Shown here piece by piece: positions 8,076-49,985 of a DNA stretch of 64,000 bases. The position numbers and the translations under genes were made by a program. The first letter of the stretch is position 1; each line of letters begins with the position of its first letter. The stretch comes from a virus. The notes beneath the pieces were generated by a model. It worked only from the letters and a program-made list of their open reading frames with translations. It made no database searches and was not told the DNA's origin. The stretch lies in the IMG/VR virus record IMGVR_UViG_3300018481_000020, positions 1 through 64,000 of that record; one strand, 5' to 3'.

Positions 8076-8242
8076 GACTCCTTCTCCCACTCGTCCCACG
8101 TCCTGCGCTCATCCATGTTCCACTCGGGGTGCTCGATGGCAGTGGACGCGACCGCCTCGATGGCAGAGAACACGTCCGTCCCAGTGATGATGGTGGCCTT
8201 GATCGTCAGGTAGTTGCGCCGCGTCATCTCCCGCACACTCAT
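8072..8242 (-). CDS. 56-residue hypothetical protein
   Basis: This short frame starts ATG at 8242 and ends TGA at 8072. It begins MSVREMTRRNYLTIKATI and ends in an acidic, Trp-containing helix. Both junctions are 4-base ATGA overlaps and the region has no other leftward frame, so the gene fills an otherwise empty gap exactly. The function is unknown. Confidence 0.6.
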   Translation of the reverse strand: MSVREMTRRNYLTIKATIITGTDVFSAIEAVASTAIEHPEWNMDERRTWDEWEKES

Positions 8243-8538
8243 GACTCCTCCCCGGGAACATCGATCCCGATGAACTCAATGTCCTTGCCCATCGCCCGGA
8301 ACATCTGCTGGAGGTGCATGATCAGGTCCCGAAGAGCATCCTTCTGGTCCTCGTACCCATGGGTGACGATGGCACCGTCGTCGGCATCCTTCAGGAGCAC
8401 GATCCCGAACACATCTTCGTTCTCCTGGTAGGCCAGGGGTTCACACATCTCCTCACACAGCGCCGTGAGTCGATCAGTTGGTACTGGACTCACCGTCGGT
8501 CCTGGCTGGTCCTGGTTCATCTCTTGCTCGTCCTGCAT
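8239..8538 (-). CDS. acidic hypothetical protein, 99 aa; first gene of the leftward operon
   Basis: I start at MQDEQEMNQD (8538) with GGAAGGA about 6 bases upstream. The longer frame to 8730 crosses the promoter and is rejected. The protein is acidic, with two Cys near residue 35 (LCEEMCE) and a helical C-terminal half (KDALRDLIMHLQQMFRAM). It is the first gene downstream of the main leftward promoter. The function is unknown. Confidence 0.65.
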   Translation of the reverse strand: MQDEQEMNQDQPGPTVSPVPTDRLTALCEEMCEPLAYQENEDVFGIVLLKDADDGAIVTHGYEDQKDALRDLIMHLQQMFRAMGKDIEFIGIDVPGEES

Positions 8539-8568
8539 GTTCGTCCTTCCGAGGTTGCTTTGGACATG

Positions 8569-8613
8569 AAAAGACCCCGAGCCGGGGAGAGCGAGCTCCT
8601 CCCGAATCGGGGT
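8569..8613 (-). terminator. leader hairpin with short U-tract (possible attenuator)
   Basis: ACCCCGA (8574-8580) pairs with TCGGGGT (8607-8613), and the inner GGGAG/CTCCC extends the stem. On the minus strand it is followed by CTTTT. It lies 30-75 bases downstream of the promoter at 8648-8676 and upstream of the first gene. This placement suits attenuation of the whole operon. Confidence 0.6.
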
Positions 8614-8647
8614 TATCTGCACGTGACTATCTAAGGCACGTGTAACT

Positions 8648-8676
8648 AGTATATCAAATACTATACACAAGCACAA
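8648..8676 (-). promoter_or_regulatory. main leftward sigma70-type promoter
   Basis: On the minus strand TTGTGC (8676-8671) is followed after exactly 17 bases by TATACT (8653-8648). The AT-rich context is exceptional here. The -10 lies within a palindrome, TAGTAT-N5-ATACTA (8647-8663), a possible operator. Transcription would start near 8642 and feed the leftward operon. Confidence 0.7.
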
Positions 8677-8677
8677 G

Positions 8678-8908
8678 GGCCAGACCCACTGATTGAGTCT
8701 GGCCTGTTCGGGGGTATCGATGCCATCCAAAGATGGTCTTCGGTCATCCTAACGATGACCTTGCTTCGAGTGACCCCGAGAAGATCTGTGTTGACCTTCT
8801 TGTTCACGGTTCGCTAACCCTTTGGGACTACCTGTTGGTAGCTGACTAAGGCCAGGAGGTCATCTCTGACAGCTTTCCCATCGGGATCTTCGCTACTTGC
8901 GCGAACAT
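8678..8908 (-). ncRNA. hairpin-rich noncoding stretch, candidate structured RNA or origin
   Basis: The 231 bases hold no plausible gene but at least seven short stem-loops. Examples are TTCGC/GCGAA (8890-8906), GGTCATC/GATGACC (8741-8759), CCATC/GATGG (8723-8736) and CTACC/GGTAG. An 8-bp GGCCAGAC/GTCTGGCC hairpin closes the left end (8678-8704). A leftward promoter sits at 8915-8943. It could be a transcribed RNA ending at the last hairpin, or a replication origin. Confidence 0.4.
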
Positions 8909-8943
8909 ATATATAGTATCTCATACTATACATACCAAGTCAA
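8889..8943. promoter_or_regulatory. divergent promoters over a 19-bp palindrome
   Basis: Leftward: TTGACT (8943-8938), 17 bases, GATACT (8920-8915). Rightward: TTCGCT (8889-8894), 17 bases, TATAGT (8912-8917), with a weak -35. Both -10 boxes lie in the palindrome TATAGTAT-CTC-ATACTATA (8912-8930). A repressor or activator bound there could switch between the two directions. Confidence 0.55.
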
Positions 8944-9900: not shown

Positions 9901-9942
9901 CCAGCTCTGTCGTATGTCTGTTCGCGGTGCTAGCGTCAAGCG

Positions 9943-10371: not shown

Positions 10372-11670
10372 GTGCCAGCAGTATCCGCCGAGGCATTGTT
10401 GATCTCAGCCCTGATCAACAACTCAGGCGTCGGGGAGGAGACCCAGTACGGGATCTCCATCCACGACTTCGAGGGCTATGCCGATGAGTACAACTGGCTC
10501 GTCAACTACGTCGAGACCTATGCGGCCCAACCCACTCGGGACATCTTCGGGCACAAGTTCTCCTCGTTCCCGTTCTCGGCCCACACCGAGATCCGCTCGG
10601 CAGCGGACATGGTCCACCAGGCAGCCAACCGCCGGCGGATGACCACGGCGATCACCGAGGCGATGGACCTGATCCACCTCGGGGAGACCAGTGCGGCCTA
10701 CGACCTGCTCTGTGAGGCCAGACCCAAACGGGCACTGGCCAAGCCACACAACCTGCTCACCGATGCCCACCACCTGGATGAGTGGGACACCAGGCCGTAC
10801 CGGGTGGAGCTCCCGTACACCACGCTGCAGCGGCACACCGGGGGGATCATGGCTGGCAACCTCTGGTACGTGGCTGCCCGACCTGGTCAGGGAAAGAGCG
10901 CCCACCTGACCTCGTTCGCCAAGCACGCGGTGCTCACCGGAAACCGGGTCCTGTTCTACTCCCTCGAAATGAGCGAGGCAGAGGTCAGGGCCCGGTTTCA
11001 TGCTTCTCTGGCCACTGAGCTGGGGTACGCCACCATCACCCTGGACAACCTCCGTAGCCGGCGCGTGGACCGTGCTGTGTACCGGAAGTTCATCGGGGAG
11101 CTGGGAGAGCGTCTGGAGGCCACTGGAGGCGGTCTGGACGTGCACACACCGGTCGACGGACCGGTATCACCATCAGAGGTAGCAGCCCGCGCTGGGGAGT
11201 ACCAGCTCTCCGTCATCGACTACGTGGGGCTCATGTCCCAGGACGGTGGCGGAGCGGCGATCGACGACTGGCGAGTGATGGCCAGGATCAGCAACTCGCT
11301 GAAGACGATCGCCTTGGCACAGGGCACCGGTTTGCTCTGTGCTGCTCAGATCAACCGTGACGGCGAAACCGGGATGGCACCACCGAAGGTCAAGAACCTG
11401 GCCCAGTCCGATGCCCTCGGGCAGGACGGGGATGTGGTGCTGACGATGCGAGCCAGGCCCAAGAACGTGGCCACCTTCTTCTCACTGGAGAAGAACCGGC
11501 ATGGGCCCAGCGGCATCTACTTCAACACAACCTTCGACCCGAACACCGGCGTCTACACCGAGATCAGTGCTGTCCAGGCTGAGGATCTCGTAGCGAACGC
11601 CGAGGCTCTGGTCGAAGGTGCCTCACCCCCACCCCAACTACGGGTCATCAAGAGCAAGGACAAGCTATGA
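10372..11670 (+). CDS. dnaB-like: DnaB-like replicative DNA helicase, 432 aa
   Basis: The ring helicase unwinds DNA ahead of the phage replisome. A RecA-type ATPase core is clear: Walker A RPGQGKS near residue 172, followed by a helix, a YSLEMS motif near 195, Walker B LSVIDYVGL near 280, and an AQINRDGE sensor-type segment. The N-terminal 150 residues are helical as in DnaB. I start at GTG 10372 with AAGGGAG upstream; an in-frame ATG at 10318 is less likely. Primase follows after one tiny gene, giving a helicase-primase unit. Confidence 0.9.
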   Translation: MPAVSAEALLISALINNSGVGEETQYGISIHDFEGYADEYNWLVNYVETYAAQPTRDIFGHKFSSFPFSAHTEIRSAADMVHQAANRRRMTTAITEAMDLIHLGETSAAYDLLCEARPKRALAKPHNLLTDAHHLDEWDTRPYRVELPYTTLQRHTGGIMAGNLWYVAARPGQGKSAHLTSFAKHAVLTGNRVLFYSLEMSEAEVRARFHASLATELGYATITLDNLRSRRVDRAVYRKFIGELGERLEATGGGLDVHTPVDGPVSPSEVAARAGEYQLSVIDYVGLMSQDGGGAAIDDWRVMARISNSLKTIALAQGTGLLCAAQINRDGETGMAPPKVKNLAQSDALGQDGDVVLTMRARPKNVATFFSLEKNRHGPSGIYFNTTFDPNTGVYTEISAVQAEDLVANAEALVEGASPPPQLRVIKSKDKL

Positions 11671-11798
11671 GTATAGAAGACTGCTCATCCCAGACAGACG
11701 ACCAACATGCACTCTTCCAGGACATAGGAGGGCACACATGGGTGTGCACCCTCGACGAATGCGACGGTGAGCATCACTACCTGCAGACGGTCGCATGA
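11667..11798 (+). CDS. 43-residue hypothetical protein
   Basis: This short frame is locked between helicase and primase by ATGA overlaps at both ends. It is acidic with three Cys and three His (CTLDECDGEHHY), so it may bind a metal ion. Its position suggests a helper of the helicase-primase pair, but that is inference only. Confidence 0.55.
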   Translation: MSIEDCSSQTDDQHALFQDIGGHTWVCTLDECDGEHHYLQTVA

Positions 11799-12622
11799 GG
11801 GCATACACGCTGGCTGAAGCTCTCCGCTTCGGAAGGGGTGTGGAACGAAGTTTCCTGTGCCCCGAACACGGGGACTCGCGACCGAGTGCGTCGGTGAACA
11901 TCATCAAGAAGGTCTGGGTCTGTTACACCTGCCACGCGCACGGTGACCTCACCGGTGAGGCAGCCCTGGCCGAGCCCGACTACCACTCCATGAAGCTCTG
12001 GCTGGACAACAAGCTGTCCGAGGGGACGATCTACCCCGAGGCCTGGCTGAATCGATGGGATGCCGGCGAGGTCCACCCCTACTGGCTGAACCGGGTAGGT
12101 GAGACGGCGGCACGTGCTTTCCGTCTCGGATCGGATGCCAGTACCAACACGCTCACCTACCCGTTGCGGGACCCCACCGGCCAGGTACTGGGAGTGGTAC
12201 GACGGGCGCTGGGAGCGCATGGACCGAAGTACCTGTACCCAACCGGTATCGACGTGGGGAGCCTGCTCTTCAACTACACACCATCTGCTCGCTCAGCGGT
12301 AGTCCTGGTCGAGGGTGCGCTGGATGCGATCGCGCTCTGGAACGTGGGCGTGGATGCCTTCGCGATCTACGGATCCAGGTTGTCACCCGCCCAGGTCAAG
12401 CTGATCGACCGGATCGACCCGGAGTACGTCTACACCTGCTATGACCGCGACGACGCCGGCTGGGCTGCCTATCGAGACACCGAGCGTGCCTTCAAGCACC
12501 GGCTGGTGTCCCGGCTGAGCTGGCCGGCGAGCTGGGGCAAGGACATCGATGACATCGGAGTAGATCGCCGCAGGAATGTCGTCCATGATCTTGTATCTAC
12601 AGGTCTGGCCAGCATAGAGTGA
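11795..12622 (+). CDS. dnaG-like: DnaG-type DNA primase, 275 aa
   Basis: It makes RNA primers for phage DNA synthesis. An N-terminal zinc site is visible as C22, H25, C43 and C46. A TOPRIM catalytic core follows, with VEGALDA near residue 172 supplying the Glu and YDRDDAG near 214 the Asp pair. At 275 residues it is less than half the length of bacterial DnaG and has no helicase-binding domain of the usual kind. It is coupled to the upstream small gene. Confidence 0.88.
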   Translation: MRAYTLAEALRFGRGVERSFLCPEHGDSRPSASVNIIKKVWVCYTCHAHGDLTGEAALAEPDYHSMKLWLDNKLSEGTIYPEAWLNRWDAGEVHPYWLNRVGETAARAFRLGSDASTNTLTYPLRDPTGQVLGVVRRALGAHGPKYLYPTGIDVGSLLFNYTPSARSAVVLVEGALDAIALWNVGVDAFAIYGSRLSPAQVKLIDRIDPEYVYTCYDRDDAGWAAYRDTERAFKHRLVSRLSWPASWGKDIDDIGVDRRRNVVHDLVSTGLASIE

Positions 12623-14474: not shown

Positions 14475-17210
14475 ATGAGAATCATCCCCACATTCAGGGT
14501 CATCCCCAGGCCGGCCAGCAACTGGTGGTCACTGCACACGCACTCGCGATACTCGGTGAACGACGCGATGCCCACGGTAGAGGCGATCGTGGCCAAGGTC
14601 TCCCGAATGGGCCAACCGGCCCTCGCGATCACCGACCATGGCAACATGGCTGCCTCGGTGGAGCTGTACCAGGCCTGTAGGAAGGCGGGGATCGCCCCGT
14701 TCCCGGGCTCAGAGCTGTACTTCGTGCCGGACACGGCGCAGTACCGAGCAGACCGGGTGAACAAGGCGGTGAAGGCCACCATGTACCACCTCGGTGTGGT
14801 GGCCTTCACCACCGAGGGCTACGAGAACCTGGTGAACCTGTCCACGCTGAGTCACCGCAACCACCACTACAAGCCACTGGTGGACTACGCGATGCTGGCT
14901 CAGCTGGCCCAGGATGGGCGTACTGAGGGCCTCGCGGTGACCACTGGCTGCTTCTTCGGGTACCTGGCCCAGACACTGATCAGCGCCGGCGAGCAGCCGG
15001 CTCTCCAGTTCCTGCACACGCTCTCGTCGTGGTTCCCGGATAGCGTGTATGTGGAGGTGCAGAATCATCACATCACTCATGAGGACGGGCTTGGTGATGA
15101 GGAACTGGCTGATGCGATGGTGGCGCTGGCCCAGACGGCTGGCTTCCCGGTCGTCCTCACGCAAGACGCACACTACTTGGATCAGGAAGACCGGGCTGAC
15201 CACGAGGGCCTCAAGCGCCTGGTCGCTTTCGGCCCAGACCCAGACGACGCTGTTTTCCCCGGAGATGGGTTCCATGTGGCAGATGCCGGATGGATCGAAG
15301 ACCATCACAGTGAACATCGGCTTGCGCGAGGAATGGAAGGACTGGCAGATCTCCTCGGTCGCCACACACTCTCGATCCCTGTCCTTGACTCTTACTCCTA
15401 CTCGGTACCGGAGGTAGTAGAGAACCCGCAGCGGGCGATGATCCTGCGGGTCCACGAGGCTGCCGCAGAACTGGGTCTGCCGAAGCGCTACTGGTACCAG
15501 CTGGACGAGGAACTGGTGACCATCGAAGCGGCGGGGATGGCCGGCTACATGATGCTGGTGGCCCAGGTGACCGACTGGCTACGCGAGCAAGACATCATGT
15601 TCCAGACCCGTGGCAGTGCTGCTGGATCGCTGGTGTGCTGGCTGCTCGGGATCAGCAATGTGGACCCGATCAAGTGGGACCTACGTTTCGAGCGGTTCTT
15701 GTCCAAGGACCGGACCAAGCCACCTGATGTGGACCTTGATGTGGCCCACGACCGTCGTGATGAGCTCCTCGCGATGCTTGATACACGATTCACTGCCCAT
15801 CAGATCGGCTCGTGGGCCACGTACTCACTGAACGACACCGAGGACGAGTTCGGTGCGACCCAGCGAGGGTCCTTGAGGGTTCGTTACTTCACCGCCTCCG
15901 GGAAGAAGGATGAGGGTGCCACCTCATGGTCTGAGGTACCCACTGAGGACAGGGATATGCTTATGTCTCTATCCAACAGACACCTCTACAAGGGGATGGG
16001 CACCAACGCTGCTGGCATCGTGCTGACCAGTACCTCGGTGGAGTTCGACAAGTTGGTGCCCATGGCCTGGATGGCTCGTGGTGCACACTCCGGTGGCTTC
16101 GTCACCCAGTACTCCAAGGACCAGATCGAGGCACTGGGCCTGGTCAAGCTGGACGCGCTCGGGTCCAAGACGATGACCATCCTGGACCACACCATGCGCC
16201 TGCTGGACATGCCGATCTCTCGCATTGCGGACATTGAGTACCGGGACGGGCCTACCTATCAGCTGATCAGGGGTGGCCAGACCGATGGCTTGTTCCAGCT
16301 GGAGGGCAAGTCCACGAAGTGGGGACTGCGGGACCTGAAGCCAGGCGCGATCAAGGACGTGATCGCAGCGATGGCGCTGTTCCGGCCGGCCACGATGAAC
16401 ACGGGTGCGACCAGAGCATTCATCGCACGCAAGCACAAGGAAGCTGAGATACCCCAACGACACGAGCTGATCAGCAAGGTCACCAAGGACACCCACGGGA
16501 TCATGCTGTACCAGGAGCAGGTCATCGACGTGCTCCGGGGACTAGGGATGGGAGCAGATGACCTGACCACCTTCTTGAAGGCTGTGAAGGCCTCCAACAA
16601 GGACATTGGTGATGCCGGTGCTGTGATCGAGACGTACCAGGCCTGGATCCAGCAGCGGTGCGACGAGATCGGGATGACCTATGAGGATCAGAACTACCTT
16701 CACGATGCCATTGCGGGCTTCGCTGAGTACGGCTTCAACCGTGCTCACGCCACTGTGTACGGCATCACTGCGTACCGCGCGTCCTATCTTGCGGCTCGGC
16801 ATCCGCTTGAGTACCACACCGCTCTCCTGGGCGTTGCGAGCGAGGGAGAGTCGAAGAAGGAGAACAGGTACATACAGACGACTCGACGCAGGGGCATCCG
16901 AGTTCTCAGCCCTGAGATCAATACTTCAACAGCCAGCTATTCCATCGACGACCGCCGTGGTGCGATCCGCAAGGGGCTTCAGAGCATCGACGGTGTGGGA
17001 GCTATCTCAGCAACCAAGCTTGCTGGACTCCAACCTTTTGCCAGTCTCGATGACCTGGTTGAGAGATCTGCCACCGCCTCCATCTCCGGATTCAAGGAGT
17101 ACGACGGAACCCCCGAGTCACTGACCGGCATCCTCGGTCACCTGAACAAGTCAGGGTGTCTGGTCACCCTGATCCACGGAAGGAAGGAAGAGAGAAATGT
17201 CCCACTGTGA
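14475..17210 (+). CDS. dnaE-like: DNA polymerase III alpha subunit (DnaE-type, C family), 911 aa
   Basis: It is the replicative polymerase of the phage. The N-terminal PHP domain shows LHTHSRYS near residue 20 and ITDHGNM near 52. The palm has PDVDLDV near residue 417 and KLDALGSKT near 559, giving the expected catalytic Asp residues. QTRGSAAGSLVCW and FAEYGFNRAHA match other C-family motifs. At 911 residues it is shorter than cellular DnaE (about 1160). No clamp, clamp loader or separate epsilon subunit is seen here, so host factors are likely used. It ends in a 14-base overlap with the HNH gene. Confidence 0.93.
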   Translation: MRIIPTFRVIPRPASNWWSLHTHSRYSVNDAMPTVEAIVAKVSRMGQPALAITDHGNMAASVELYQACRKAGIAPFPGSELYFVPDTAQYRADRVNKAVKATMYHLGVVAFTTEGYENLVNLSTLSHRNHHYKPLVDYAMLAQLAQDGRTEGLAVTTGCFFGYLAQTLISAGEQPALQFLHTLSSWFPDSVYVEVQNHHITHEDGLGDEELADAMVALAQTAGFPVVLTQDAHYLDQEDRADHEGLKRLVAFGPDPDDAVFPGDGFHVADAGWIEDHHSEHRLARGMEGLADLLGRHTLSIPVLDSYSYSVPEVVENPQRAMILRVHEAAAELGLPKRYWYQLDEELVTIEAAGMAGYMMLVAQVTDWLREQDIMFQTRGSAAGSLVCWLLGISNVDPIKWDLRFERFLSKDRTKPPDVDLDVAHDRRDELLAMLDTRFTAHQIGSWATYSLNDTEDEFGATQRGSLRVRYFTASGKKDEGATSWSEVPTEDRDMLMSLSNRHLYKGMGTNAAGIVLTSTSVEFDKLVPMAWMARGAHSGGFVTQYSKDQIEALGLVKLDALGSKTMTILDHTMRLLDMPISRIADIEYRDGPTYQLIRGGQTDGLFQLEGKSTKWGLRDLKPGAIKDVIAAMALFRPATMNTGATRAFIARKHKEAEIPQRHELISKVTKDTHGIMLYQEQVIDVLRGLGMGADDLTTFLKAVKASNKDIGDAGAVIETYQAWIQQRCDEIGMTYEDQNYLHDAIAGFAEYGFNRAHATVYGITAYRASYLAARHPLEYHTALLGVASEGESKKENRYIQTTRRRGIRVLSPEINTSTASYSIDDRRGAIRKGLQSIDGVGAISATKLAGLQPFASLDDLVERSATASISGFKEYDGTPESLTGILGHLNKSGCLVTLIHGRKEERNVPL

Positions 17211-44265: not shown

Positions 44266-47200
44266 ATGCCGTACACGTCAGATGCTCAGCGCAAGTTCAT
44301 GCACGCGAAGCATCCTGAGATCGCGGCGAAGTGGGATGCCGAGATCCGTGGGAAGAAGAAGAAGATCGCGAAGGGCTGGGCCAAGCCGATCGGCATCGGC
44401 GTGGGAGCCAGCGTGCTCGGTGGTGCTGCGGCCAACCAGATTCCTCCAGTGCAGAAGACTGAGTGGTACCAGGAGCGCCGGCGCAAGAAGAAGAAGAAGG
44501 GTCAGATCAAGAAGATGCTGGCCCCGGTCAGCGATGACCCCTTCTTCAACCAGGAGGCGGCCCAGAAGACCTTCGACCTGATCATGAAGATGGACGACGA
44601 CACCGCTGCGGTGTTCTGCTACATCGTCGCCTCGGACCTCCTGGAGCGGGAGGTGGAGGAGAACCGGGTCACCCTGCAGAAGCACCTGGACGAGGTGGTG
44701 GCCAAGCGACTGACTGATCTGAAGAAGGCCACCCTGCGGGCGGTCAGCAAGGGCATGGAGAATCCTCAGCCGTACGCCCAGGCGCTGGCCATGATCGACT
44801 CGATGATCAGCAAGGCTGATGACGACATCCCGGACTGGGAGTTCGAGCGCAAGATCAAGCGCGACCCCTCCTCGGGTCGGTTCCGGACCAAGTTCAGGTC
44901 CACGCCGCTGAAGAAGCCGATGCCAGACAAGACTGCGAAGACGCTGGGGATCGCAGGTATCACCGGTGATAGGTACAAGAACAAAATGAGTCCCAAGGAG
45001 AAGGCCCGCTACCAGCACCAGTACCTGCAGATAGCCGACTTCCTGGGCGCGGTGAATGCTGCCACCGATGGCGACAACGAGACCTTGGTCCACTTCCGGA
45101 ACGAGGCGACCGGAGAGACCTGGGCAGAGAAGGCCACCAGCACCAAGCCCATGACCACCATGCTGGAAGAGAACGTCTGGGCGGTAGCTGCCGAGGCGAA
45201 GCCAACCACCCTGTCCGTGGGCGGGGCGGCGTTCAGCCTGGCTGGAGCAGCCGGCAAGACCATGTCTGCTGATCAGGTGAAGGCCTTCAACACCGCTGGG
45301 GAGAAGAGTGACGAGTGGAAGGCCTCCTGGCTCACCGACGATAACGGGCAGAACCAGAATGCTCGGCTCTACCAGCGCACGCACACTTTGGGGACGGTGG
45401 CCCAGGAGCTGGGGCCTGATGGCAGCAAGGTTCAACTGGCCGGCAAGATGGCCTCGATCGTCGGACAGTACGGACCTCAGGCCGAAGAGGTGCTCGGGCC
45501 CAGTGCCAGGAAGACCGCCTACCGGTACCGGGGCACGGAGCGGACTCCCGACGAGCGGCTGATCGGTATGTACTCCCGGGCTATCGATCAGAACAAGCGC
45601 CAGGGCGGGCTCAACCCCTTCGAGGAACAGGCTGAGAACCGGATCAGGACTGCGCGCGGAGCCAAGAAGCAGCCGTTCGGGTCTGAGACCGGAGTACGTG
45701 GCAAGGGATCTTCGCGGCCTATGGCTCAGCCCGGAGTCACGCCGGCGATCACCCAGATGGTCCGGGAGCGAGAGGCTGCTGCCGGTCGTGCACCGGATTG
45801 GCGTGAGCGGGAGTTGGGCCGGGTGGCAGTACAGCGCTACCTGATGGACGAGCTGCCCTCCAAGAAGTACTACAAGCTCCAGCTGGCATCAGGGAACACG
45901 CCGCCTTCCGAGGGTGTGATCATCAACTCCGAGGGCCAGATCGTCACCCAGGCCGTGGGCTATGGCGATGACCACTACCTGCCGTTCAACCTGAAGAACC
46001 TCAAGGGACTCAAGGGCGGGGAGTACATCCGGAACCGCTCGGTGGGTGGGCTGACCGCCGAGGATGTGTACACCGGGCTGATCAGCGGAGCCCGCCGGGT
46101 GACCGTGGTATCCCGCTCGGGAACGTTCACGATGGAGTTCAAGCCGGACTTCCGGGGTGGTCGGCGGCACAACGACAAGGCTCGGCGGATGACCAGGCGC
46201 TACGAGCAGGTCCTGGATGCGGTGCAGTCTGAGCAGGTAGAGCGGGCCCCCGTGCCGATGCGTTGGCGCAAGATGATCGAGGAAGAGGTCAAGGCCGAGT
46301 ACGGGCCCACTGCTTCACCGCGTCTGGTTCGGGCCGAGATCGATGCTCGGGAGAGGGAGTTCAAGGCCAACCCTCAGGTCAACGGTCGGGACATGGATCG
46401 GGCCGAGGCCAGCATCAGCCAGTTCGAGGAGCAGCAGAAGCGAGGCCTGGTCAGTGCACAGGACGTGGCCGACTACCGCAAGCAAATCCATAGTGAGCTG
46501 CGCGATCTCAAGGAGATCCACTTCCGGCTGAACGGGGTCGGCTACGAGGCTGCCCTGGACTCCTTGCGCGAGCAGTTCCCCTACTACATCGACGCCCAGT
46601 CGCACCCGACCGCAGAGAACCTGGAGGGTGAGATCCAGGAGCACGAGATGGACATGGGCTACGTGGAGCCCGGCCGGAATCGACCCACCTCGGCCCAGGC
46701 TGGCTGGTTCGGCACTCGCAAGGAGGAGAGCGGCAAGTTCTCTGCGGCCTACTCCGATTACCAGCGTGGTCTGCCGGGTACGCCGGAGCCGCACGGGCAC
46801 CCGCGTGAGAAGGGGAAGTTCAAGCCCACCAACGTCACTTCTTCCACCGGCTCTTCTGGCGGCGGTGCGAGTGTAGGCCTGCGTTCGGATCGTGAGCGGA
46901 CTCGGGACGCTGCGATTGAGGCCCTCCAGGCGAACCAGGCCAAGGAAGGTGTGATCAGCTCCGCAGTGGCCCTGCAGCAGGCAGTCAAGGTGCACAAGCC
47001 GCCCACGGGTATCTCCACCCCGGAATGGTGGTATCACTCCGAGGATCAGATGCGGGAGTACCTGGGCAACGATGCGAACCGGAAGAAGTTCGACACCACC
47101 GTCAGCCAGATCGGAGCGGCCGACTTCGATGAGGCCGGAGCCTCACGGCCGTGGCAGGCCTACCAGACCGCCCGCAAGCGCACCGGTGGTGGTAAGCCCT

Positions 47201-47970
47201 ACTCCCCTGAGCACGCAAACACCTGGCCGACGGAGGGCCCGTACAAGTTCACTGGTGACAACGAGCGGGATGCCTACCGGGCCAGCCCGTTGCCCGGTGC
47301 GGTTGATATTGAGGTCAAGCGACTGGATGGTGAGGACACCTCACTGAAGTTCGGTCGACCACTGTCCGCGCTCAACGGCCGTGAACTCCGCGAGGAGTTC
47401 GAGCTGTCCAAGAACGTGCGCGAGGCGATGAAGACTGCGAAGCTGCAGGGCACGGCAGCCCAGGACGCACTGGGCTCGCAGTTCCAGAACTCTGGATCTG
47501 CCTTCGCCAGCAACTTCTTCCGCGACGACGCTGGTGCCGCCAAGCACTTGGAGAACATCCACCGGATGCACCACCTGAAGTCAAAGAGTGGTGGTGGAAC
47601 CACGGGTGGCGGACCTGTCGGTGGAGTCGGTGGCTTCGGACGGCCCACTCCTCCCCGACCTGGTGGACAAGCTCCTAGTGGAGCCAGGGTCCAACCTCCG
47701 CAAGGTGGTGGTGACAGTAGTGGTCGGTTCGTGGAGCTCGACCCAGACGACGAGAGGTTGGTCGAGGACGCTCGTCGGAAGTACCTGAAGGCTGCCGAGC
47801 AACTCATCTTGAATCCGGAGAGTCAAGAAGAACATGATGCGCTGTACATGTTCAAGGAAGGGATGAAGGGGTCTCATCCGGCGAAGGGATTCAATGAGCA
47901 CACCAAGTGGCTCGAAGAGCTGCCTGACAAGACTCGGACGAAGCTATATGCGCAAGCGGGCTACTCGTGA
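44266..47970 (+). CDS. very large unrecognised capsid-region protein, 1234 aa
   Basis: It starts with MPYTSDAQRKFMHAKHPEIA, a motif common in phage head-region proteins. Visible parts are a Gly/Ala-rich hydrophobic stretch near residues 43-60, a Lys-rich stretch, RDPSSGRFRTK near 205 (a motif echoed in the MuF protein), a large central region with long helices near 650-800, and a low-complexity Gly/Pro-rich linker near 1115-1155. I recognise no enzyme. It could be an internal head or ejection protein. Confidence 0.7.
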   Translation: MPYTSDAQRKFMHAKHPEIAAKWDAEIRGKKKKIAKGWAKPIGIGVGASVLGGAAANQIPPVQKTEWYQERRRKKKKKGQIKKMLAPVSDDPFFNQEAAQKTFDLIMKMDDDTAAVFCYIVASDLLEREVEENRVTLQKHLDEVVAKRLTDLKKATLRAVSKGMENPQPYAQALAMIDSMISKADDDIPDWEFERKIKRDPSSGRFRTKFRSTPLKKPMPDKTAKTLGIAGITGDRYKNKMSPKEKARYQHQYLQIADFLGAVNAATDGDNETLVHFRNEATGETWAEKATSTKPMTTMLEENVWAVAAEAKPTTLSVGGAAFSLAGAAGKTMSADQVKAFNTAGEKSDEWKASWLTDDNGQNQNARLYQRTHTLGTVAQELGPDGSKVQLAGKMASIVGQYGPQAEEVLGPSARKTAYRYRGTERTPDERLIGMYSRAIDQNKRQGGLNPFEEQAENRIRTARGAKKQPFGSETGVRGKGSSRPMAQPGVTPAITQMVREREAAAGRAPDWRERELGRVAVQRYLMDELPSKKYYKLQLASGNTPPSEGVIINSEGQIVTQAVGYGDDHYLPFNLKNLKGLKGGEYIRNRSVGGLTAEDVYTGLISGARRVTVVSRSGTFTMEFKPDFRGGRRHNDKARRMTRRYEQVLDAVQSEQVERAPVPMRWRKMIEEEVKAEYGPTASPRLVRAEIDAREREFKANPQVNGRDMDRAEASISQFEEQQKRGLVSAQDVADYRKQIHSELRDLKEIHFRLNGVGYEAALDSLREQFPYYIDAQSHPTAENLEGEIQEHEMDMGYVEPGRNRPTSAQAGWFGTRKEESGKFSAAYSDYQRGLPGTPEPHGHPREKGKFKPTNVTSSTGSSGGGASVGLRSDRERTRDAAIEALQANQAKEGVISSAVALQQAVKVHKPPTGISTPEWWYHSEDQMREYLGNDANRKKFDTTVSQIGAADFDEAGASRPWQAYQTARKRTGGGKPYSPEHANTWPTEGPYKFTGDNERDAYRASPLPGAVDIEVKRLDGEDTSLKFGRPLSALNGRELREEFELSKNVREAMKTAKLQGTAAQDALGSQFQNSGSAFASNFFRDDAGAAKHLENIHRMHHLKSKSGGGTTGGGPVGGVGGFGRPTPPRPGGQAPSGARVQPPQGGGDSSGRFVELDPDDERLVEDARRKYLKAAEQLILNPESQEEHDALYMFKEGMKGSHPAKGFNEHTKWLEELPDKTRTKLYAQAGYS

Positions 47971-49985
47971 CCATTGCGCCGTTCGTCGAGCTCGGGTTCC
48001 ACCCGACTGATCTGCGGCCTGGGGATCTGCCCAAGACCGGGGCATTCCTCGGATCCCCGGCCGAGGCGATGGAGGCCGCGCTGGCCATCGTCCGGGCTCG
48101 GATGGTCGACCAGATGCACGCCGAGATCAAGGGGATCGCACAACCCACTCAAGCCCAGCTGCTGACCATCATGGACCTGGCCTGGCAGGGCATCTTCCCG
48201 GCGTTCCGGAAGGTGTCCGCCCCGATGATGGCCGATGCCTATATCCGGGCATACCGCTCAGCTGATGCCGGTGACGTACCGCTGAGTGTGATCTACGCAC
48301 TGGCTGACAAGCATGCGGAGAAGGTGGGGCTGTACTTCTACGGATCCTCCCGCGAGGCTATGGCCGAGGGGTTCAACACCCTGGTCAACCGGCGATTGCC
48401 GGCCAAGGCTGCTGCTGGGAAGTTGATGGATGCCTGGGGTCTGACTCCACGGCAGGTGCAGGCGTTCATTGCTTCCCAGCAGCTCGATACTCCAGTGAAG
48501 TCGGCGTCCCCATTCGCACTGAAGGCCAGGGCCCGGGCCTACATCGACCGAGCCTTCACCTCCAGGGCCAAGAAGCTGAGTGCTCAGGAGGAGCACAACA
48601 TCGAGGAGCAGGCGAAGCAGTACGCCTGGATGTGGCTCCAGGACAAGGGCCGGCTGTCGAAGAAGGCCCAAAAGATCTGGATCACCGCCAAGGACGAGAA
48701 GGTGTGCAAGGTCTGCGGTCCGCTGAACGGGAAGAAGGTCGGAGTCAATGAGCAGTTCCGCACCCCCAAGGGAGAGTTCTGGACTCCCGGTGTGCACCCG
48801 AACTGCCGCTGCTATATCCGGCTGATCGAGAACCGGTTCTCCAAGTCCGCCTTCGGGATAGTCAGGAAGGACCTGGCCGGCACTGCCCTGGCGGAGTTCA
48901 ACGAGCTGCACCCACGCACGGAGTCAGGTCGGTTCGGTACCAAGGCCCGGACCAAGACCATCGATGTGGATGAGGAGTTCAAGCGGCTGGTGTCCCAGCC
49001 GAGCTTGATCAAGCCGGTACGACACCTCACCTACGCCGATGCCGAGCCTGATCCCGAGATCGACGAGCAGTTCTTCCAGCTGATCTCAGCCCAGCCGAAG
49101 CGGCGGGGGTTCACCTCGGTCTGGGGCAGCCCACTGGAGGTGAAGACCTTCCGGGAGGAGGCAAAAGCACAGATCGCTGATGTCGAGCCGATGATCAACT
49201 TCGCCGCTGACGTGGCGGTAGAACTAAGAGCCAAGTCCAGGCTGGAGACCAAGCCGAAGCAGCGGATGAAGACTCCGACCATCCCTGTCGGGCAGCCGGC
49301 GTTCGCCGTGATCCAGAACGAACTACTTGGAGACGGAGAGATCGACCGGATCCGTTTCAACCACGGCGTCACCTTCCATACCGACGCGATCGGCGCGGCC
49401 CAGGAGGCTGGCGAGCTGAAGAAGGAAATCGTCGATCGCAAGGTGGACGACATGATCGACCAGCTCGCTAAGGATCGTGGGCGGACGGTCAAGATGGAGG
49501 ACCCGAAGACCGGGGAGATGCTCTACGCCAAGATGAGGCCCAAGGACATCGAGGCGATTGCTGACTGGTACGGGCGGAGCGCTACCTCGCATCACCACGA
49601 TGACTTCGATCCTGAAGACCTGGAAGATGAAGGTGCTCAGCTCGACTGGGGGGACCGGGAGGGGACTGTGGTCACTTGGTACAACGAGAAGGGCGAGGCC
49701 TGGGGAACAGACCAGATGTCCTATCGCCATCTAGGTCACACTTACTTTGCGCAACGATCCTCGGACTACGAGGTCTATGTGGCCGGGATTGACCAGATTG
49801 CGACTGATAGTGAAGTGAACGACATCAGCGGTAGCGCGAACAGCAGGCACCGGGAGTTCAGTGTCGATGGCGACTACGTGCTCCGCCCGGAGACAGTGAA
49901 GCGGACCAAGGCTGATCACTTCTACGACGCCACCAGCTTCATGATGGACCCGGAGGGATCCGTGGAACTGCCCAAGGACGAGTAG
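47967..49985 (+). CDS. MuF-like minor capsid protein, 672 aa
   Basis: The SPP1 gp7/Mu F fold is shown by WITAKDEKVCKVCGPLNGK near residues 238-256 and HPNCRCYIR near 277-285, a Cys-His set typical of the family. It contains SAFGIVRKD near 292 and LHPRTESGRFGTK near 311. The remaining 350 residues are unrecognised and acidic toward the end. It probably assists portal assembly or is ejected. GTG start, 4-base overlap. Confidence 0.78.
   Translation: MTIAPFVELGFHPTDLRPGDLPKTGAFLGSPAEAMEAALAIVRARMVDQMHAEIKGIAQPTQAQLLTIMDLAWQGIFPAFRKVSAPMMADAYIRAYRSADAGDVPLSVIYALADKHAEKVGLYFYGSSREAMAEGFNTLVNRRLPAKAAAGKLMDAWGLTPRQVQAFIASQQLDTPVKSASPFALKARARAYIDRAFTSRAKKLSAQEEHNIEEQAKQYAWMWLQDKGRLSKKAQKIWITAKDEKVCKVCGPLNGKKVGVNEQFRTPKGEFWTPGVHPNCRCYIRLIENRFSKSAFGIVRKDLAGTALAEFNELHPRTESGRFGTKARTKTIDVDEEFKRLVSQPSLIKPVRHLTYADAEPDPEIDEQFFQLISAQPKRRGFTSVWGSPLEVKTFREEAKAQIADVEPMINFAADVAVELRAKSRLETKPKQRMKTPTIPVGQPAFAVIQNELLGDGEIDRIRFNHGVTFHTDAIGAAQEAGELKKEIVDRKVDDMIDQLAKDRGRTVKMEDPKTGEMLYAKMRPKDIEAIADWYGRSATSHHHDDFDPEDLEDEGAQLDWGDREGTVVTWYNEKGEAWGTDQMSYRHLGHTYFAQRSSDYEVYVAGIDQIATDSEVNDISGSANSRHREFSVDGDYVLRPETVKRTKADHFYDATSFMMDPEGSVELPKDE

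What the first reader, a model, noticed from the sequence alone, without database searches (positions are those of the whole stretch)
8678..8908. A 231-base hairpin array between divergent promoters
At least seven perfect short stem-loops, spaced roughly 15-35 bases, fill this stretch with no plausible gene. A leftward promoter stands at one end (8915-8943) and an 8-bp hairpin at the other. It could be a new structured RNA, or an origin whose single strand folds to load primase.
Basis: partly seen in the sequence, partly recalled or inferred. Interest (0 to 1): 0.7.

Follow-up and report, generated by a model that had tools for sequence, protein, structure and literature searches.

The report
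Conserved structured RNA of uncultivated phages
The hairpin-rich stretch encodes a small structured RNA, apparently made leftward from its own promoter, that ten related phages keep by compensating mutations while the neighbouring genes are swapped; what the RNA does is not yet known.

Summary
The hairpin-rich region is real. It is one leftward RNA gene of about 238 nt (predicted start 8908, end about 8671), flanked by two leftward promoters, not divergent ones. The leftward RNA folds far better than shuffles (z -5.3; opposite strand -3.3). There are ten distinct versions, the window's included, in uncultivated relatives (helicase 68-76% identical). Their core (three stacked helices, then a GC hairpin) shows 42 both-sided pair changes against 11.4±3.0 in shuffles, and at least 31 independent replacements on a tree, in 16 of 24 pairs. 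It is single-copy and has no Rfam match.

A cassette is conserved: promoter P1, RNA, hairpin T1 whose tail overlaps the -35 of promoter P2, a P2 leader, strong terminator T2, then the first gene of the leftward operon. That gene belongs to seven unrelated families across the ten phages, so the cassette is not tied to one gene.

Most likely it is an autonomous early phage noncoding RNA, comparable to the Pleft RNAs of mycobacteriophages L5/D29. The main rival is a put-like cis antitermination RNA acting on T1/T2. An origin is not supported. Structure is shown by covariation; transcription and function are inferred.

The parts
8915..8943 (-). Promoter P1 of the RNA: TTGACT-17-GATACT
   Evidence: consensus scan; homologous in ten phages, 7 of 10 with TTGAC at -35, shared spacer motif TGTNGTGTATG
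8671..8908 (-). The structured RNA (predicted 5' end 8908, about 238 nt)
   Evidence: z -5.35 for the leftward strand; nine homologues elsewhere; CM R1 match 67.8 bits
8801..8907 (-). 5' domain closed by an 8-bp helix (8907-8900 with 8808-8801); this part varies in size among relatives
   Evidence: minimum-energy and centroid fold; relatives can form a 5'-terminal stem of other sequence (not tested statistically)
8780..8799 (-). Accessory hairpin GAAGGUCAACACAGAUCUUC; a similar one is seen in L047
   Evidence: fold and sequence comparison
8711..8777 (-). Core module: three stacked helices (GGGGU/ACCCC, UCGA/UCGA, apical stem) with conserved GUCA
   Evidence: covariation in A2
8678..8704 (-). 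Hairpin T1 (11-pair stem), candidate 3' end of the RNA; its tail CTTGTGC overlaps the -35 of P2
   Evidence: terminator-like scan; 7 of 10 pairs with both-sided changes
8648..8676 (-). Promoter P2: TTGTGC-17-TATACT, leftward
   Evidence: conserved in relatives, strongest hit of the promoter motif in the window, alignment
8620..8642 (-). P2 leader hairpin
   Evidence: inverted repeat, fold of the window's own leader not dominated by it
8574..8613 (-). Terminator-like hairpin T2 followed by UCUUUUC
   Evidence: inverted repeat; corresponding strong hairpin, mostly with a U run, before the first gene in all ten phages
8239..8538 (-). First gene of the leftward operon, 99 aa, unknown function
   Evidence: ORF with RBS-like GGAAGGA; no Pfam match

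Best explanation
The stretch is the gene of a small structured noncoding RNA of a phage, probably infecting an actinobacterium. SHOWN: the leftward RNA structure is maintained by compensatory changes, it is single-copy, and it sits in a conserved cassette P1 - RNA - T1/P2 - leader - T2 - operon whose downstream genes are interchangeable. INFERRED: P1 fires early on host sigma-70-type RNA polymerase; the transcript starts at about 8908, forms a 5'-terminal stem, variable accessory hairpins and the conserved core, and ends at or is processed near T1, giving a stable 98-238-nt RNA. P2 restarts transcription within the T1 tail for the operon, and T2 damps it. Because the conserved unpaired positions are only short patches (GUCA, GARCA), the RNA more likely acts by binding a protein (host RNA polymerase, a nuclease or a defence component) than by base-pairing to a target RNA. 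It works like the abundant Pleft noncoding RNAs of L5/D29, without being a demonstrated member of that family.
For: Leftward fold z -5.3. Covariation: 92.9% of cells paired, 16 of 24 pairs with both-sided change, 42 such cells against 11.4±3.0, no shuffle reaching it, and sliding partners destroys it; at least 31 independent replacements. Every relative's contig that covers the locus has it, once per record among those searched whole. P1 and predicted 5' ends lie at the same spacing. T1 element lengths of 36, 37, 39 and 40 nt break any common reading frame. Seven unrelated kinds of first gene behind the same cassette. L5/D29 precedent of an abundant stable RNA between Pleft and the first gene, with over 90% fall-off downstream: PMC5712189.
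Against: No RNA-seq or 5'/3' end mapping. The T1 tail is a weak U tract (CUUGUGCU), so T1 may not terminate. The presence of P2 and T2 right behind it also fits a cis leader. Leftward z-scores vary among relatives (-1.3 to -6.7) and in three of ten the opposite strand has the lower z. The host group is inferred only from distant helicase relatives. The trans action and the protein partner are not tested at all.
Confidence: 0.5

Rival explanations
1. A cis-acting processive antitermination RNA, like HK022 put: the nascent P1 transcript folds and binds the elongating polymerase so that it reads through T1, T2 and later promoter-proximal terminators of the leftward operon.
For: T2, a strong intrinsic terminator-like hairpin, stands between P2 and the first gene in all ten phages; a second leftward promoter in W, L030 and L053 is also followed by a hairpin and terminator; independence from downstream gene identity; put is a two-stem-loop RNA near an early promoter (PMC9378689).
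Against: The RNA ends in its own terminator-like hairpin and is followed at once by a new promoter whose transcripts would lack it; the second promoter-terminator unit lacks the RNA; RNA size varies from 98 to 238 nt.
Confidence: 0.3
2. A ligand- or protein-responsive attenuator (riboswitch-like leader) whose expression platform is T1 or T2.
For: Conserved aptamer-like core directly upstream of a GC-rich hairpin.
Against: No conserved anti-terminator pairing was seen when the sequences were inspected (not tested statistically); P2 lies inside the T1 tail and would bypass control at T1; downstream genes are of seven unrelated kinds; no Rfam riboswitch matches.
Confidence: 0.1
3. A replication origin, either a DNA hairpin region for primase loading or a primer RNA, beside the helicase-primase genes.
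For: Lies upstream of the helicase and primase genes; AT-rich flanks; cumulative GC-skew minimum nearby.
Against: Pairs fit RNA of the leftward strand better (12 G-U against 6 A-C); distance to the neighbouring rightward gene shifts by kilobases; the skew minimum coincides with the strand switch of genes; promoter and terminator-like signals at the ends.
Confidence: 0.06
4. Chance hairpins or a conserved protein-coding segment.
For: Hairpin count alone is within reach of shuffles; an open frame (8239-8730) runs through the 3' part.
Against: Strong covariation and indels of 1, 3 and 4 nt in T1; stops in several relatives seen by reading the sequences.
Confidence: 0.02

Closest known systems
Pleft noncoding RNA of mycobacteriophages L5, D29 and StarStuff (PMC5712189)
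   Same: Noncoding transcript between an early leftward promoter and the first gene of the leftward operon in an actinobacterial phage; high expression and fall-off before the genes would be expected here by analogy.
   Different: About 500 nt with no evident stem-loop terminator at its 3' end; D29's locus has no match to model R1 (best 12 bits, E about 1). Ours is 98-238 nt with tandem promoters and a T1/P2 overlap.
HK022 put RNA (PMC9378689)
   Same: Small multi-stem RNA just downstream of an early phage promoter, followed by terminators.
   Different: put is about 70 nt with two stem-loops; here a promoter is embedded in the tail of the 3' hairpin; antitermination by the present RNA is untested and no homology to put was tested.
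GOLLD / ROOL large ornate RNAs (PMC12286853)
   Same: Structured noncoding RNAs, often associated with phage or prophage genomes (own knowledge).
   Different: Far larger (own knowledge); no Rfam match to our loci.

Membership tests
Any Rfam 15 family | match at the curated gathering score | tested here: not met
   window and relatives: only a tRNA in L016; permissive search gives only chance-level matches
L5/D29 Pleft noncoding RNA | position between an early-type leftward promoter and the first leftward gene, no conserved ORF | tested here: met
L5/D29 Pleft noncoding RNA | sequence/structure homology with the D29 right-end locus | tested here: not met
   R1 with filters off on D29 45500-49127: best 12.0 bits, E about 1
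L5/D29 Pleft noncoding RNA | abundant, stable transcript early in infection, toxic to host | not testable with these tools
   needs RNA-seq, Northern blot and expression assay
HK022 put antitermination RNA | structured element close downstream of an early promoter, with terminators beyond | tested here: met
HK022 put antitermination RNA | sequence or structure homology to put (two stem-loops, about 70 nt) | not tested
   no put sequence was compared
HK022 put antitermination RNA | factor-independent read-through of terminators through the beta' zinc-binding domain | not testable with these tools
   needs in vitro transcription and reporter assays
Riboswitch/attenuator | conserved alternative pairing between core and terminator | tested here: inconclusive
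   none seen on inspection of the ten sequences; no systematic test run
Replication origin | DNA-level structure at a fixed place beside replication genes; replication starts there | tested here: inconclusive
   strand bias towards the leftward RNA, variable position, skew minimum nearby; start mapping not possible

The most novel reading that the evidence does not exclude
A new family of phage regulatory RNA that programs the leftward early operon: its nascent transcript modifies host RNA polymerase to read through terminators placed right behind early promoters, a put-like system in phages of actinobacteria without sequence relation to put.
Probability: 0.22. Interest if true: 0.8.

Novelty: new variant of a known kind. 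Interest (0 to 1): 0.55.

Why it matters
It is a covariation-supported phage RNA family absent from Rfam, in a conserved promoter-RNA-terminator cassette kept while the attached genes are exchanged. Such early RNAs are known in L5/D29 but unexplained; a family with a defined core and at least 31 compensatory replacements makes the question of what early phage RNAs do directly testable, and the covariance model gives a means to find more.

Tried and rejected
DNA similarity of the region to 50,697 phage records: no match. Pattern scan of genome contigs for the T1 element: 22 places, none convincing with model R1 (best 27.9 bits in a Clostridia MAG that the same pattern had picked; not followed). 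Model R1 on cultured Gordonia and Brevibacterium phages with a related helicase, and on D29: no member. Leaderless short peptide: ATG stands at the predicted start in 9 of 10 phages, but the frames read differ in length and sequence, so a conserved peptide is not supported. An origin: position varies and strand bias favours RNA. Integrase (PF00589): none in six records, so lysogeny is not indicated, though records may be incomplete. A first parsimony count with a too lenient cost gave 8 events; I replaced it, which treats non-standard pairs as unknown and G-U as intermediate, and gives at least 31. L5 itself (NC_001335, Z18946) is not in the collection.

Full report
OBSERVATION. The stretch 8678-8908 contains many short stem-loops. 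Counting perfect hairpins alone is not decisive: 7 with at least 4 bp against 4.2±1.6 in dinucleotide shuffles, and 9% of window stretches have as many hairpins of at least 5 bp. The whole fold is decisive: the leftward RNA reaches -95.0 kcal/mol, z -5.3, no shuffle of 200 as good; the rightward strand z -3.3. P1 at 8943-8915 is confirmed, but the second flanking promoter, at 8676-8648, is also leftward: the arrangement is tandem.

SETTING. The window is part of an 81,457-base uncultivated virus record. Its neighbours are a leftward block (ParB-like/DUF6551, DUF4262 and unknown genes) and a rightward block with DnaB helicase (10432-11670), primase (11795-12622) and DNA polymerase III alpha (14475-17210). 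No close DNA relative is in the annotated phage collection; the best helicase matches are Gordonia and Brevibacterium phages at 27-29%, so an actinobacterial host is inferred.

RELATIVES. Two helicase searches and pattern scans of viral contigs gave ten distinct sequences of the element, the window's included: W, L041, L043 (L042 and L044 give the same model score at the same place), L046, L047, L048, L050, L051, L053, L030. Model R1 finds it at 67.8-95.2 bits, once per record among those searched whole; other matches are at chance level. Close relatives without it have contigs that end before the locus could be reached (L045, L049, L052: inferred from the position of the helicase gene near the contig end), and a 39% relative (L054) gives no match.

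STRUCTURE. On the MAFFT alignment A2 (not fitted to the structure) the named 24 pairs give 92.9% paired cells, 16 pairs with both-sided change, 42 such cells against 11.4±3.0, none of 500 shuffles reaching it; sliding the partner by one to three columns drops pairing to 34-58%. RNAalifold finds nearly the same structure from the alignment. On a tree of the helicase plus a neighbouring protein (several branches weakly supported), at least 31 independent both-sided replacements are needed: 2 in helix P1, 6 in P2, 8 in P3, 15 in T1. G-U cells outnumber A-C cells 12 to 6, favouring the leftward RNA strand. Caveat: the structure was partly read from these same sequences, and z-scores of single relatives vary, three of ten favouring the other strand.

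ANATOMY. Every homologue has a P1-like promoter (mostly TTGAC at -35, spacer motif TGTNGTGTATG, -10), a predicted start 6-7 nt further on, a variable 5' part, the core, and T1. Predicted lengths are 98 to 238 nt. In all, the tail of T1 is CTTGTGC, which supplies the -35 of a second leftward promoter P2 (in L041 and L043 the rest of P2 fits less well). After P2 comes a short hairpin leader, then T2, a long GC hairpin with a U run in most, then a ribosome-binding site and a gene. The first genes fall into seven unrelated kinds across ten phages. A second leftward promoter in W (6909), L030 and L053 is likewise followed by a hairpin and a terminator.

INTERPRETATION. That the locus encodes a maintained RNA structure is shown. 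That it is transcribed from P1 is inferred from promoter conservation and spacing. The best reading is an autonomous early noncoding RNA, compared with the Pleft RNAs of L5/D29, which are abundant and stable, whose locus is toxic, and whose downstream genes fall by over 90% (PMC5712189). The main rival is a put-like antitermination element (PMC9378689). The data do not separate them; I give 0.5 and 0.3. Attenuator and origin are less likely. The conserved unpaired positions in A2 are short, which I take to favour protein binding over base-pairing; this is inference.

KNOWN OR NEW. No Rfam family matches. Model R1 does not match D29, GMA6 or ChisanaKitsune, so membership in the L5/D29 RNA is not shown. 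I found no paper describing it, within an open-access library only. It is a new RNA family within the known kind 'early phage noncoding RNA'.

Noticed in passing
L016 3024-3089 (-), within the P2-T2 leader of IMGVR_UViG_3300047408_000062 (same contig as L053): A tRNA-like sequence (Rfam tRNA 48.1 bits) whose anticodon arm has only about a 3-nt loop, so it appears to lack an anticodon; possible decoy or degenerate tRNA.
   Followed up: partly
L115 17887-18940 (Gordonia phage GMA6) and L116 17722-18883 (ChisanaKitsune; matches in 11 Gordonia phage records): Gaps of about 1 kb between the leftward operon and the helicase operon, with a strong leftward promoter and about 570 nt without annotated ORF in most records; GMA6 folds with z -3.1, ChisanaKitsune -0.6. 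Possibly another early noncoding RNA.
   Followed up: partly
window 6909 to about 6803 (-), L030 about 6805 (-), L053 about 695 (-): A second conserved leftward promoter (CCCTAAATAGGCTATAAT) followed by a short hairpin and a strong terminator with a U run before the next gene.
   Followed up: partly
L046 about 9930, L053 about 9902-9935, L048 about 9900, just upstream of the helicase gene: Palindromic sites resembling the P1/P2 spacer motif (such as GTGTAGTGCATAC), perhaps operators of a shared regulator.
   Followed up: no
window 8908 and the corresponding positions in relatives: ATG stands at the predicted transcription start in 9 of 10 phages, often as ATGAGRTC; it could be a leaderless start codon or a start-site preference.
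   Followed up: partly
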